Source: Brevundimonas subvibrioides (GTDB taxonomy: Bacteria > Pseudomonadota > Alphaproteobacteria > Caulobacterales > Caulobacteraceae). From it: a stretch of 64,000 bases of DNA. The translations under genes and the position numbers were made by a program. The stretch lies in NCBI RefSeq assembly GCF_002280785.1, contig NZ_NCEQ01000007.1, positions 186,001 to 250,000 of the forward strand, given 5' to 3'. The number at the start of each line of letters is the position of its first letter. Within the stretch, counting starts at the first letter, position 1. Positions 13,490 to 17,941 of the stretch are shown here, one piece after another. A model generated the notes under the pieces. That model did no database searches, was not told where the DNA came from, and saw only the letters and a list, made by a program, of their open reading frames with translations.

Positions 13490-14011
13490 TTACCCGGCGG
13501 GCGTAACGGTGACGGAAGCGGGCGCGCCGCCGTCCTCGCCGGGGGTCCACTGGACGATGATCTTGCGCACCTGGGTGTCGGCCGAGTCGGTCTGCTGGTT
13601 CCAGCTGCTCTGGCTGATCTCCAGATCCACGCGGTTCGGGCCGGTCGAGAGCACGGTGTACTCGTTGAAGTCGCCCAGTTTGTAGACCGCCCAGCCGTCG
13701 GCGGTGGACTGGAAGACCGCCAGATAGGTGTAGAGGCCGTTGATCGCCGGGTCGCCGCCGGCCGTGCCAAACAGCTTGGCGTCGGTGTCAGGGATGTCAT
13801 CCACCTTCACCACCGAGGCGGCCCACTGGATGTTCTCCTCGGCAGCCTCCGCAGCCAGGGTCTCGGACGGGCCGTTGGCGGTCAGGGACGTGCCCTGGGG
13901 CGCCGCCGTCGCTTCGGTCGTGGTCGTCACCTTGACCTCCGGCGCCGCGTCGCAGGCGCTGGCGGTTACGGTGGTTGCGAGGGCGGCAGCGATGAGCAGA
14001 TGACGCGACAT
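13490..14011 (-). CDS. Exported protein of unknown function (putative lipoprotein)
   Basis: 173 residues. MSRHLLIAAALATTVTASAC looks like a signal peptide ending in a Cys at residue 20, but the lipobox (TASAC) lacks the usual Leu at -3, so lipidation is doubtful. The mature part begins with a Thr-rich, low-complexity linker and then a compact domain (GLYTYLAVFQ, GWAVYKLGDFNEY). I do not recognise the family. It is divergent from ruvX, 48 bp away, and upstream of gatC. Confidence 0.7.
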   Translation of the reverse strand: MSRHLLIAAALATTVTASACDAAPEVKVTTTTEATAAPQGTSLTANGPSETLAAEAAEENIQWAASVVKVDDIPDTDAKLFGTAGGDPAINGLYTYLAVFQSTADGWAVYKLGDFNEYTVLSTGPNRVDLEISQSSWNQQTDSADTQVRKIIVQWTPGEDGGAPASVTVTPAG

Positions 14012-14059
14012 GGAACCTCTCCGTTATGGTCAAGCTCACTGTCGTCTTTGACAGGCGGC

Positions 14060-14563
14060 ATGGCAACGCCTACCGCCCGCGCTGTGCCCGTATTTGATCT
14101 GACAGACCTGCCCGCCGCCTGCCCGCCCGGCACCGCCTGGATGGGGCTGGACCTCGGCGAGCAGACCATCGGGGTGGCGGTGTCGGATACGACCCGCCTG
14201 ATCGCCAGCCCGCTGTCGCTGATCAGGAAAACGAAGTTCACCGATGATGCCGCCGCGCTGTTCAAGCTGATGGACGCCCGCAAGGTCTCCGGCCTCGTCA
14301 TCGGCCTGCCGGTCAATATGGACGGCACGGAGGGACCGCGCGCCCAGTCGTGCCGGGCGTTCGCGCGCAATCTGGACAGGCTTCGACCGACAGGCGTCGC
14401 CTTCTGGGACGAGCGGCTGTCGACCAGCGCCGTCGAACGGTTCCTGATCGACGAGCTGGACCTGTCACGGAAGCGCCGCGCCGGGGTGGTGGACCGGACG
14501 GCCGCCGCCTGGATCCTGCAGGGAGCCCTGGACCGGGTGCGCGACCAGCAGACCTGGACATGA
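14060..14563 (+). CDS. ruvX: Putative pre-16S rRNA nuclease / Holliday junction resolvase YqgF
   Basis: 167 residues from the ATG at 14060. RNase H-like fold with the first acidic residue in GLDLGEQTIGVAVSD, the GLPVNMDGTEG loop, WDERLST with the second acid, and DRTAAAWILQ at the end. The N-terminal extension of about 30 residues (PTARAVPVFDLTDLP) is the usual one in alphaproteobacteria. YqgF matures the 5' end of 16S rRNA and is essential in many bacteria. Its stop overlaps the ATG of the permease gene (ATGA). Confidence 0.93.
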   Translation: MATPTARAVPVFDLTDLPAACPPGTAWMGLDLGEQTIGVAVSDTTRLIASPLSLIRKTKFTDDAAALFKLMDARKVSGLVIGLPVNMDGTEGPRAQSCRAFARNLDRLRPTGVAFWDERLSTSAVERFLIDELDLSRKRRAGVVDRTAAAWILQGALDRVRDQQTWT

Positions 14564-15483
14564 TCGGCATGATCGCCGGGGTCGTCCCGGTCTTCATCCT
14601 GATCGCCCTGGGCTACGGGTTGAGGAAGACGGATTTTCTGCCCGACGCGACCTGGCGGCCGATCGAGAAACTGTCGATCAACCTGCTGTATCCCGGCTTC
14701 CTGATCCCGGCGATCTGGGGCGCCGACCTGTCGGGCGGCAGCGCCCGGGCGGCTGCGGCGGCGGCGGTCGTCGCGGTCCTGATCGTGTCGGCGGCGACGC
14801 TGCTGGCCAAGCCTCTGATGACGATCGAGGGGCCGGCCTACACCTCGGTGTTCCAGGGCGTGATCCGGTGGAACAGTTTCGTCTTCCTGCCGGTGATCCA
14901 GGCCGCATTCGGGGCCGAGGGGCTGGCGTTGGCCGCGGTGATGATCGCCTGCATCATTCCGGTGACCAATATCGCCTGCGTCGCCGTGCTGGCGAAATGG
15001 GGCGCCGATCAGCGGGCCGTGACGCCGTTCCAGCTCGTCAAGGCGATGCTGGCCAATCCGATCCTGCTCGCCTGTCTGATCGGCCTGGCGCTGAACTTCT
15101 CCCGGGTGCCGCGCCTGCCGGGGATTTCGGACACGCTGGAGCTGCTGGGCTCGGCCGCCCTGCCGCTGGGCCTGATCATCGCCGGCGCGGGCCTGAGCTT
15201 CACCGAGGTGGCGCGCAGGAAGTTCACCATCGCCGGGGTATCGTTCGTGAAACTGTTCCTGATGCCGCCCCTCATGTGGGGGCTGTGCATCCTGTTCGGC
15301 GGCGATCATCTGGCTCAGGGCGTCGCGATGCTGTGCGGGGCGGCGCCGGGGGCGGCGGCGGCCTATCTGCTGGCGCGCCAGATGGGCGGCGATGCGCCCC
15401 TGATGGCGGGTGTGATCGCTCTGACGACCGTGATCAGCGCCCTGATGATGCCGCTGCTGCTGTTCCTCCATCACCTGACTTGA
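14560..15483 (+). CDS. AEC-family (auxin efflux carrier-like) membrane transporter
   Basis: 307 residues with about ten hydrophobic segments in two halves, beginning GVVPVFILIALGYGLRKT, the standard AEC start. The first half holds the conserved SINLLYPGFLIPA and WNSFVFLPVI segments; the second half contains GLALNFSRVPRLP and APGAAAAYLLARQM. AEC permeases export organic anions such as malate, but the substrate here is unknown. The ATG overlaps the ruvX stop. Confidence 0.9.
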   Translation: MIGMIAGVVPVFILIALGYGLRKTDFLPDATWRPIEKLSINLLYPGFLIPAIWGADLSGGSARAAAAAAVVAVLIVSAATLLAKPLMTIEGPAYTSVFQGVIRWNSFVFLPVIQAAFGAEGLALAAVMIACIIPVTNIACVAVLAKWGADQRAVTPFQLVKAMLANPILLACLIGLALNFSRVPRLPGISDTLELLGSAALPLGLIIAGAGLSFTEVARRKFTIAGVSFVKLFLMPPLMWGLCILFGGDHLAQGVAMLCGAAPGAAAAYLLARQMGGDAPLMAGVIALTTVISALMMPLLLFLHHLT

Positions 15484-15531
15484 GGCCATTGTCTTGAGGT
15501 CGGGGCCTGAGGTCCGTATAGCCGGGCTTCG

Positions 15532-16512
15532 ATGACCCAGCTTGATGCCGCCGCCGACCTTATCGCCGACCGGCTGGTCCCGTTTCCGAAACCCCATTTC
15601 CTCGCCGCCGGCGATCTGAACCCGCCGTTCGTGTTGAGCCTGCTGGATCTGGCGGACTCGTTCGTCGATCTGAACCGCCAGTCGACCAAGCAGCTCGACC
15701 TGCTGCGGGGCAGGACGGTGATGAATCTGTTCTTCGAGAACTCGACCCGGACCAGTTCCTCGTTCGAGATCGCGGCCAAGCGTCTGGGCGCCGACGTGGT
15801 GACCATGCCGGTCCAGGCCAGTTCGGTGAAGAAGGGCGAGACCCTGATCGACACGGCGGTCACCCTGAACGCCATGAAGCCGGATATTCTGGTCGTCCGG
15901 CACGGCGCGTCGGGCGCGGCGGCCCTGCTGTCGCAGAAGGTCGGCTGCGCGGTCGTCAACGCCGGGGACGGACGACACGAGCATCCGACCCAGGCACTGC
16001 TGGACCTGTTGAGCCTGCGTCGCGCCTTCGGCGACGTGGGCGGGCTGACCGTCGCCATCTGCGGCGACATCGCCCACAGCCGGGTGGCGCGGTCCAATGT
16101 CGCCCTGCTGTCGATGATGGGGGCGCGGGTGCGGCTGATCGGGCCGCCGACCCTGGTGCCCGGCGACGCCGACCGCTGGGGCTGCGAGGTCTTCCACGAC
16201 ATGCGCGAGGGTCTGGCCGGCTGCGACGTCGTCATGATGCTGAGGCTGCAGCTGGAGCGGATGGACGGGGCCCTGGTGCCGTCGACGCGCGAGTATTTCC
16301 GCTTCTGGGGCCTCGACCGCGAGAAGCTGGCCTGGGCGAACGCAGGCGCCAGGGTCATGCACCCCGGACCGATGAACCGGGGCGTGGAGATCGACTCCGA
16401 CGTCGCCGACGACCTGACCGTCTCCCTGATCCAGGATCAGGTCGAGATGGGGGTCGCGGCGCGAATGGCGGTCCTGGCCTCGCTGTCGGCCCGTCTGGAG
16501 GGCGCGGCATGA
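15532..16512 (+). CDS. pyrB: Aspartate carbamoyltransferase catalytic subunit
   Basis: 326 residues. The carbamoyl-phosphate site ([20 protein letters not shown]), [11 protein letters not shown] and the aspartate loop [10 protein letters not shown] are intact, followed by [11 protein letters not shown]. It forms N-carbamoyl-L-aspartate in pyrimidine synthesis. No pyrI regulatory gene is present. The downstream gene is a dihydroorotase homologue lacking metal ligands, as in class A ATCases, where the inactive partner is needed for the holoenzyme. The stop TGA (16510-16512) still forms ATGA with an orphaned ATG at 16509. Confidence 0.97.
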
Positions 16513-16667
16513 GTTCGTTCCGCCCAGTCCTCCCCCATCGGGGGAGGGGACTCGAAGCGAAGCGTAGAGACGGAGGGGGCGAGCCCCGGATGCCGGCGTG
16601 CGGGGTGGGCCCCCTCCACCGCGAAGACGCGGTCCTCCTCCCCCGATGGGGGAGGATTTTCGCATGA
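16509..16667 (+). CDS. Possible 52-codon leader frame created by the repeat insertion
   Basis: The original pyrC start codon, ATG at 16509, still overlaps the pyrB stop (ATGA). From there the frame runs through the inserted element without a stop for 52 codons and ends in TGA at 16665-16667, which overlaps the present pyrC ATG (16664) in the same ATGA arrangement. Translation from pyrB through the element into pyrC is therefore possible. Whether a stable peptide is made is unknown; the sequence (Arg/Gly/Pro-rich) does not look like a selected protein. Confidence 0.3.
16518..16661. mobile_element. 144-bp inverted-repeat element inserted at the pyrB/pyrC junction, copy 2
   Basis: Perfect inverted ends: TCCTCCCCCATCGGGGGAGG at 16528-16547 and its exact complement at 16637-16656; each is also a hairpin. 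It is flanked by an 11-bp direct repeat, GCATGAGTTCG, at 16507-16517 and 16662-16672, as expected for a target-site duplication. The duplicated bases include the pyrB stop and the pyrC start codon. No transposase gene is inside, so it is a MITE-like element moved in trans or a mobile repeat of REP type. Confidence 0.78.
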
Positions 16668-17941
16668 GTTCGCAGGCCATCATCAACGCCCGCCTGCTGG
16701 ACCCGGCGAGCGACTACGACGGCCCCGGCTCGGTGGTCATCGAGGACGGCGTCATCACCCGCGTCGAGCGCGGGTCTGTCGCGGTCTCGGCCACGGAAAT
16801 CCTCGACGCGCGCGGACTGTGCCTGTCGCCCGGCCTGATCGACATCCGCGTGCGAACCGGAGAGCCGGGGGCCGAGCCCAAGGAGACGCTGAAGTCCGCC
16901 AGCCTGTCCGCAGCGGCCGGCGGGGTCACCACGGTGGTCATCCAGCCCGACACCGATCCGGCTGTGGATGATCCGGCCATGGTTGATTTCATCCAGAGGC
17001 GGGGCGCCGCCCTGAACCTCGTCAACGTGCGGGCGGCAGGGGCGGCGACCAAGGCCCGCGACGGCAAGCGGATGGCCGAGATCGGCCTGATGCACGAGGC
17101 CGGCGCCCTGTATTTCACCGACGGCGACCACGTCATCGCCGACAGCCGCGTGCTGCAGCGGGTCATGGCCTATGCCACGGCGTTCAACGCCCTGATCGCC
17201 TGTCGTCCAGCCGATCCGTGGCTGACGGAGGGCTCGGTGGCGACGTCGGGCGAACTGGCGACGCGGCTGGGCCTGTCCGGCGCCCCAGCCATCGCCGAAC
17301 GCATCCAGCTGGAGCGGGACCTGGCCCTGGTCGAACAGACCGGCGTGCGCTTCCTCGTCGACCAGATCTCGACCGAGGCGGCGCTGGAGGTGCTGGCGCG
17401 CGCGCGGGGCCGGGGGCTTGAGGTCGCGGCCTCGGTCTCGATCAACCACCTGTGCTTCAACGAGATCGACATCGGCGACTACCGCACCTTCTTCCGGCTG
17501 GAGCCGCCTCTGCGCCCCGAGAGCGACCGGCGCGCCCTGATCGAGGCGGTCCGCGACGGGCTGATCGAGGCCATCACCTCGGCGCACACCCCCGCGCCCG
17601 CCGAGGACAAGCGCCGCCCGTTCGCCGAGGCCGCGCCGGGGGCGGTGGGTCTGGAGACACTTCTGCCTGCCGCCCTCAGCCTGCATCACGAGGAGGGGCT
17701 GGATATGCTCGACGTGCTTCGTCCGCTGACCCATGGGCCTGCGAGCCTGCTGGGACTTGAGGCGGGGCTGCTGGCGGCGGGCGCGCCGGCCGACCTGATC
17801 CTGTTCGATCCGGGCGCGCCGGTGATCGTCGACGCCGCCACTCTGCGGTCGAAGTCGAAGAACTCGCCGTTCGACGGGCGCAGGCTGCAGGGCAGGGTGG
17901 AGATGACGATCGTCGGCGGGCGGGTGGTCTACGCCGCCTGA
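16664..17941 (+). CDS. pyrC: Dihydroorotase homologue, predicted inactive (PyrX / pseudo-DHOase type)
   Basis: 425 residues with the amidohydrolase fold of class I dihydroorotases (SPGLIDIR, PFAEAAPGAVGLETLLP), but the catalytic site is degraded. The metal-binding HxH is RVR (Arg62, Arg64), the His of the HCED motif is Arg181 (ACRPADP), and the catalytic DHAPH is AHTPA (Ala307). Asp153 and His262 remain. Such proteins are known next to pyrB as non-catalytic partners of ATCase. An active dihydroorotase must then be encoded elsewhere. ATG 16664 was recreated by a repeat insertion that separated it from pyrB. Confidence 0.88.
   Translation: MSSQAIINARLLDPASDYDGPGSVVIEDGVITRVERGSVAVSATEILDARGLCLSPGLIDIRVRTGEPGAEPKETLKSASLSAAAGGVTTVVIQPDTDPAVDDPAMVDFIQRRGAALNLVNVRAAGAATKARDGKRMAEIGLMHEAGALYFTDGDHVIADSRVLQRVMAYATAFNALIACRPADPWLTEGSVATSGELATRLGLSGAPAIAERIQLERDLALVEQTGVRFLVDQISTEAALEVLARARGRGLEVAASVSINHLCFNEIDIGDYRTFFRLEPPLRPESDRRALIEAVRDGLIEAITSAHTPAPAEDKRRPFAEAAPGAVGLETLLPAALSLHHEEGLDMLDVLRPLTHGPASLLGLEAGLLAAGAPADLILFDPGAPVIVDAATLRSKSKNSPFDGRRLQGRVEMTIVGGRVVYAA

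What the first reader, a model, noticed from the sequence alone, without database searches (positions are those of the whole stretch)
16507..16672. Mobile inverted-repeat element split a coupled pyrB/pyrC overlap and re-created the start codon
An 11-bp direct repeat (GCATGAGTTCG) flanks a 144-bp element with perfect 20-bp inverted ends. The repeat contains the pyrB stop and the pyrC start, so the ancestral genes overlapped as ATGA, and the insertion duplicated the start. The orphan ATG opens a 52-codon frame through the element that ends in the same ATGA overlap with the new pyrC ATG. Translation could therefore still pass from pyrB to pyrC. This is a clean record of a transposition-like event for an element that has no transposase.
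Basis: partly seen in the sequence, partly recalled or inferred. Interest (0 to 1): 0.8.

Follow-up and report, generated by a model that had tools for sequence, protein, structure and literature searches.

The report
Repeat inserts acting as translational relays
A repeat element sits between two pyrimidine-synthesis genes whose stop and start codons overlap in related bacteria, and it carries a small reading frame that begins in one such overlap and ends in another, so ribosomes can likely still pass from the first gene to the second.

Summary
In this Brevundimonas genome an 11-bp repeat, GCATGAGTTCG, flanks a 144-bp insert between pyrB and pyrC. Relatives have one copy, with the genes overlapping as ATGA. 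The orphan ATG opens a 52-codon frame ending in ATGA on the new pyrC start.

The pattern goes well beyond this copy. Among 219 distinct Caulobacteraceae pyrB/pyrC junctions, 163 of 169 uninterrupted ones overlap by 4 or 1 nt, and 30 carry repeat-type inserts. In 28 of those 30 a frame opens at the pyrB stop and closes on the pyrC start; shortening inserts by 1 or 2 nt in a script leaves 2 and 2 of 30. Merged conservatively into 19 insertion events, 17 keep the relay in every member. Relay peptides look unconstrained; only the frame is kept. Elsewhere in this genome, 8 of 13 suitable copies keep an open frame onto the next start.

Likely mechanism: a relay cistron preserves translational coupling of PyrB with its pseudo-dihydroorotase partner PyrC'. 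Closest known case: mycobacterial MIRUs; here different element families do it, so selection seems to act at the junction. The 11-bp duplication is not general in the family. No expression data were available.

The parts
15532..16512 (+). pyrB, aspartate carbamoyltransferase catalytic chain; stop TGA at 16510-16512
   Evidence: NCBIfam PRK00856 and TIGR00670 over cut-off
16507..16517 (+). left copy of the 11-bp direct repeat GCATGAGTTCG; holds the pyrB stop and the orphan start as ATGA
   Evidence: sequence; single copy in L035
16509..16667 (+). relay ORF, 52 codons, from ATGA at the pyrB stop to ATGA at the pyrC' start
   Evidence: no NCBIfam match
16518..16661 (.). 144-bp insert between the direct repeats
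16528..16547 (+). left inverted repeat, itself a hairpin (TCCTCCCCCATCGGGGGAGG)
16637..16656 (+). right inverted repeat; contains GGAGG that ends 8 nt before the pyrC' ATG
16662..16672 (+). right copy of the 11-bp direct repeat, holding the present pyrC' start
16664..17941 (+). pyrC', dihydroorotase homologue with HVH to RVR and TDH to SAH changes (predicted inactive partner chain of PyrB)
   Evidence: that these motifs are catalytic is recalled

Best explanation
The repeat element sits in what is, in relatives, the pyrB/pyrC' stop-start overlap, and its 52-codon frame, which begins in one ATGA and ends in another, likely works as a relay cistron that hands ribosomes from pyrB to pyrC'. Shown: the duplicated overlap, the open relay frame, empty sites in relatives, and the same architecture in 28 of 30 inserts at this junction. 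Inferred: a ribosome that ends pyrB restarts on the relay, translates a peptide of no importance, opens the element's stable RNA fold on the way, and restarts on pyrC', in Brevundimonas helped by the GGAGG at the element's edge. Inferred: selection for matched amounts of PyrB and its partner PyrC' removes inserts that break this chain, so an insert persists here mainly if it is a relay.
For: Relay in 28 of 30 inserts (26 exit at -4, one at -1, one at -7); phase right in 29 of 30, expected relays 4.5 of 30 from phase and shuffled openness; frame-shift control 28 against 2 and 2 of 30. Other two frames closed in 16 and 24 of 30, relay frame in 2 of 30 once L264's own exit stop is set aside. 19 merged events, 17 with relay in every member, P = 6e-7 at one third. 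Kin pairs: substitutions even over codon positions, frame kept. 163 of 169 uninterrupted junctions overlap. Own genome: 8 of 13 copies with a near downstream start have a continuous frame onto it, against 1 and 0 when shifted. GGAGG 7-8 nt before pyrC' in 6 of 6 inserts of this family in Brevundimonas. Stable fold with the SD paired. Published: about 20 nt of spacing nearly abolishes coupling (PMC10666635, abstract); ATCase of P. aeruginosa needs equimolar pseudo-dihydroorotase (PMC7053772, passages).
Against: No expression or ribosome data. L176 keeps pyrB and pyrC' with a relay broken at codon 39, and L275 ends 16 nt short and out of phase, so the relay is not strictly required. 5 of 13 own-genome copies with a near start have no continuous frame (L005, L008, L010, L011, L019). 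11 of 30 inserts lack an SD-like match of 4 nt, and clearing the relay hardly changes predicted openness of the start in most inserts outside Brevundimonas. Merging into 19 events was done by hand. Only one junction was surveyed across species.
Confidence: 0.8

Rival explanations
1. The frame is kept only so that ribosomes cover the insert and Rho does not end transcription inside it (polarity); restarting on pyrC' by hand-over is incidental.
For: Any translated frame would protect; untranslated RNA in operons is open to Rho (PMC12548453, passages). Phase and openness alone fit as well.
Against: Cover needs no exact exit, and a fusion to pyrC' or an out-of-phase overlap would also cover, yet 26 of 28 relays end at -4 of the pyrC' start. 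Part of this exactness could be inherited from the duplicated overlap.
Confidence: 0.12
2. The element donates a ribosome-binding site: GGAGG at its edge starts pyrC' independently and the open frame is a by-product.
For: GGAGG 7-8 nt before pyrC' in 6 of 6 inserts of this family in Brevundimonas.
Against: 11 of 30 inserts have no SD-like match of 4 nt, 10 of these 11 are relays or better said all 11 are relays; independent start would not hold phase in 29 of 30; the SD is paired in the predicted fold.
Confidence: 0.04
3. Chance: GC-rich DNA is often open and the phase fell right.
For: P(open) for shuffled inserts is 0.47-0.93 in the eight Brevundimonas inserts, so openness alone is weak evidence there.
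Against: Phase 29 of 30 and frame-shift control 28 against 2 and 2 of 30; 17 of 19 merged events, P = 6e-7; the repeat cores in this genome fall in all three phases.
Confidence: 0.01
4. The relay ORFs are real small-protein genes kept for their products.
For: They are open and translation is likely.
Against: Substitutions fall evenly on codon positions in kin pairs (8/6/10, 5/5/3, 10/7/12, 8/8/9); the inserts fall in many sequence groups; the window's 52-aa product matches no NCBIfam model.
Confidence: 0.03

Closest known systems
MIRUs, mycobacterial interspersed repetitive units (Supply 1997 not held; described in PMC12548453, passages read; also PMC2734929, passages)
   Same: Short repeats at start codons whose own ORF is coupled to the next gene with -4 spacing, so insertion does little harm.
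   Different: Other hosts and sequence. Here inserts of several sequence families, and with the same exit even a LOG-like gene, do it at one junction; repeat cores of the window's family have no fixed phase, so the property seems to belong to the junction, not to one repeat.
CIR, Caulobacter GANTC-associated intergenic repeats (Chen and Shapiro 2003 not held; described in PMC2229807, passages)
   Same: About 110-bp intergenic repeats of alphaproteobacteria built of hairpins.
   Different: GANTC in only 4 of 27 copies; clear terminal-type inverted repeats, which CIR lacks according to that review.
MITEs (review passages PMC2229807)
   Same: Short, multicopy, inverted repeats, no transposase gene inside.
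   Different: No general target duplication; no autonomous partner identified.
REPIN/RAYT systems (recalled; PMC3116915 and PMC2817692 seen as listings only)
   Same: Two hairpins in inverted arrangement.
   Different: 0 matches for the Y1 transposase family in the genome.

Membership tests
MIRU | insertion at a start codon with an ORF coupled at -4 to the next gene | tested here: met
   window copy; feature taken from PMC12548453 passages
MIRU | mycobacterial repeat sequence family | not tested
   host is Brevundimonas; no MIRU sequence was compared
MITE | terminal inverted repeats, short, multicopy, no transposase gene inside | tested here: met
   the repeats are subterminal in the window copy
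MITE | target-site duplication | tested here: not met
   as a family trait: 25 of 27 copies share 6 nt or less, L014 7, window copy 11
CIR | GANTC methylation site in the repeat | tested here: not met
   4 of 27 copies
REPIN/RAYT | Y1 REP-associated transposase in the genome | tested here: not met
   PF01797: 0 matches in the own genome; control rang in 5 of 14 genomes, Caulobacter vibrioides among them
ATCase with pseudo-dihydroorotase (class A2) | PyrC homologue with lost metal and catalytic motifs next to pyrB | tested here: met
   HVH to RVR, TDH to SAH against 3d6n; only TIGR00857 match over cut-off in the genome
ATCase with pseudo-dihydroorotase (class A2) | 1:1 complex needed for activity | not testable with these tools
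   shown for P. aeruginosa in PMC7053772 (passages)

The most novel reading that the evidence does not exclude
Coupled gene junctions act as selective gates: DNA that lands in an important stop-start overlap, repeat or real gene, is kept mainly if it becomes a cistron coupled at both ends. Repeats are thereby turned into translated relay cistrons again and again, a route for the birth of new small cistrons inside operons. At the same junction an intervening gene (LOG-like in the one case identified) exits at -4 in 13 of 17 rows and a lipoprotein-like gene (L253) enters and exits at -4.
Probability: 0.5. Interest if true: 0.82.

Novelty: new variant of a known kind. Interest (0 to 1): 0.72.

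Why it matters
It is a natural experiment, run about 19 times by a conservative count, on whether overlap-based translational coupling matters in living cells: when the overlap is split by 55-241 nt, a bridge of no fixed sequence is kept open and in phase. It gives an evolutionary counterpart to reporter work that says ribosomes hardly cross gaps, and it predicts many unannotated translated mini-cistrons made from repeats, which could be mistaken for small-protein genes in ribosome profiling.

Tried and rejected
Rfam: two matches, both far below the gathering score and from unrelated hosts (21.2 against 40 and 19.5 against 50 bits); rejected as chance. REPIN idea: no Y1 transposase match. CIR idea: GANTC rare. 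General target duplication: tested on flanks of 27 of 30 copies (L011, L020 and L029 gave no clear border and were dropped) and on empty sites found in six relatives with 12 copies' flanks; rejected. Remnants of a longer duplication at the start in the set of 30 inserts: mean 4.7 matches of 14 against 3.9 by chance, not convincing beyond the window copy. Intrinsic ORF of the element: core lengths fall in all three phases (13, 5, 9 of 27 for remainders 0, 1, 2). Hot-spot claim: not made, copy numbers in other species were not measured. First gene-finder training preferred a shadow ORF over pyrB and was redone.

Rows dropped: 3 of 280 loci did not parse (L175, L186, L304); 277 gave 232 distinct junctions; L225-L237 (13 rows) were left out of the family count by number, and L228 (Caulobacteraceae MAG) and L231 (Caulobacterales MAG), both uninterrupted, fell with them. 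L253 (a gene) and L337, L338 (longer pyrC') were not counted as inserts. In one search, 97 of 101 genomes' junctions were fetched. One search returned a capped list (best 80). In one search (149 genomes, 144 with a match) 23 new loci came with the search, 80 further places were fetched, and about 34 lower-ranked genomes were not. An earlier count said 9 of 30 inserts lack an SD; the recount is 11.

Full report
WHAT IS THERE. pyrB (15532-16512) is followed by the repeat copy 16507-16517, a 144-bp insert (16518-16661), the second repeat copy 16662-16672 and pyrC (16664-17941). The orphan ATG at 16509 opens 52 codons that end in ATGA with the pyrC ATG. The pyrC product aligns along its length with Aquifex dihydroorotase, but the motif HVH reads RVR and TDH reads SAH (that these are metal and catalytic residues is recalled). 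It is most likely the inactive partner chain PyrC'. In P. aeruginosa such a chain is needed in equimolar amount for ATCase activity (PMC7053772, passages).

EMPTY SITE. L035 (G053, PyrB 96% identical) reads GCATGAGTTCGCAGGC with one repeat copy and an ATGA overlap; L033 has the same repeat once; the closest genome, L032 (98%), has GCATGAGTTCC. Insertion with duplication of the overlap is therefore the plain reading for this copy. The repeat is beyond chance: at most 9 in 702 mismatched flank pairs.

FAMILY. A DNA search gave 77 matching stretches in the genome with 40 of 116 candidates scored; the hairpin end occurs 117 times, the reversed control pattern 0 times. Many of the 30 copies examined lie tightly between genes. 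Of 27 copies with clear borders, 25 share 6 nt or less between their flanks, L014 shares 7 and the window copy 11. Empty sites in six relatives, found with joined flanks of 12 copies, show no long duplication. So the 11-bp duplication is real but not the family's usual trace.

THE JUNCTION ACROSS THE FAMILY. From 101 genus genomes, a capped scan of species genomes (best 80 kept) and 149 family genomes I read 280 loci; 277 parsed, 232 distinct, 219 in the family set. Of the 219, 169 are uninterrupted, and in 163 of these pyrC' starts at -4 or -1 of the pyrB stop; 30 carry repeat-type inserts; 17 an intervening gene (one of the 17, L220, was checked: Pfam Lysine_decarbox, i.e. LOG-like); 1 a lipoprotein-like gene (judged by eye); 2 only a longer pyrC'. 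The raw comparison puts the 30 inserts in 12 components; I regrouped them into 11 by splitting Brevundimonas from Asticcacaulis members that share stretches of about 40-60 nt and by joining two pairs. They occur in Brevundimonas, Caulobacter, Phenylobacterium, Asticcacaulis and an unnamed genus.

THE RELAY. In 28 of 30 inserts a start codon at the pyrB stop opens a frame of 20-82 codons that closes on the pyrC' start: 26 at -4, one at -1 (L264), one at -7 (L283). In one of the 28 (L254) the frame starts directly after the stop rather than overlapping it. Failures: L176 (stop at codon 39) and L275 (ends 16 nt short, out of phase). Phase fits in 29 of 30. With inserts shortened by 1 or 2 nt in a script the count is 2 and 2 of 30. 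Expected from phase and shuffled openness: 4.5 of 30. The relay frame is closed in 2 of 30 (the script prints 3 because it counts L264's own exit stop), the other two frames in 16 and 24 of 30.

INDEPENDENCE. On a tree of 216 rows from PyrB and PyrC' the inserts form 24 pure clades and need 23 changes of presence. Merging same-group inserts of one genus by hand gives 19 events: 17 relay in every member, 18 in at least one; P = 6e-7 for 17 of 19 at one third.

FRAME YES, PEPTIDE NO. In four kin pairs substitutions are even over codon positions (8/6/10, 5/5/3, 10/7/12, 8/8/9); in the seven pairs compared indels are absent, a multiple of three, or add up so that both frames stay open to the exit. 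L053 and L087 differ in length, 202 and 55 nt, and both are in phase. This is what selection for being translated, not for a product, would leave.

ELSEWHERE IN THE GENOME. Of 30 copies, 19 lie between co-directional genes by my gene calls; 13 of the 19 have a start of the downstream frame within -12 to +25 of the element's edge. 8 of the 13 have a continuous frame onto it, against 1 and 0 of 13 when shifted: pyrB/pyrC'; metF/metH (upstream gene extended through the element; TGATG in the relative L359); nuoN/birA; gyrA/class IV aminotransferase; a hydrolase/astA-like (TAATG in the relative L367); an unnamed ORF/mnmE; DUF952/pyrD (upstream gene extended); mutS/glnD (names). In this looser test the relay may start up to 30 nt from the stop (for example -17 in L016, +4 in L014). 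The five without are L005, L008, L010, L011 and L019.

RIBOSOME SITE AND FOLD. GGAGG from the right inverted repeat ends 7-8 nt before the pyrC' ATG in 6 of 6 inserts of this family in Brevundimonas; 11 of 30 inserts have no SD-like match of 4 nt. The window RNA folds at -117.2 kcal/mol, z -7.25, with the SD paired. Clearing the relay raises predicted openness around the start from 0.22 to 0.41 in the window and in all eight Brevundimonas inserts, but hardly, or the other way, in most others (mean of 30: 0.43 to 0.50). SD donation and unfolding may help in Brevundimonas; the shared feature is the relay.

MECHANISM AND LITERATURE. Reporter work found that about 20 nt between genes nearly abolishes coupling (PMC10666635, abstract) and that the need for an SD varies from pair to pair (PMC6728339, passages). 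An untranslated insert of 55-241 nt would thus be expected to uncouple the genes; a relay cistron would keep them coupled. MIRUs of mycobacteria are described as doing this at start codons (PMC12548453, passages). My searches listed no paper whose title or abstract start describes this at pyrB/pyrC or in Caulobacteraceae; most subscription papers are not held, so this is weak evidence of novelty.

VERDICT. A real, recurrent and testable pattern: repeats that split a coupled junction are found there mostly as relay cistrons. It works like a MIRU; what is new is that inserts of several families do it, as if the rule belonged to the junction.

Noticed in passing
L220 and 16 other loci with gaps of 577-609 nt: A whole gene of about 193 codons (LOG-like in L220) sits between pyrB and pyrC', starting in a TGATG or ATGA overlap and exiting at -4 in 13 of 17; L221 has a broken frame.
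   Followed up: partly
L253, between pyrB and pyrC': A 141-codon lipoprotein-like ORF enters at -4 and exits at -4, so a non-repeat insert follows the same rule.
   Followed up: partly
L004 and L023 (own genome): The upstream genes (metF, DUF952 protein) run on through the element as C-terminal extensions and end on the start of metH and pyrD: another way to keep translation continuous.
   Followed up: partly
L014 (own genome, nuoN/birA): A 7-bp shared word (CCCGCCC) and look-alike start regions on both sides of the element hint at an older duplicated start.
   Followed up: partly
L176 = L256 (Asticcacaulis biprosthecium): The one insert in phase but with a stop at codon 39: a natural test of whether a broken relay is tolerated.
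   Followed up: no
window 13966-16686, minus strand: A 906-codon open frame runs antisense to pyrB and its neighbours; most likely a GC-rich shadow ORF, it misled a simple gene finder.
   Followed up: no
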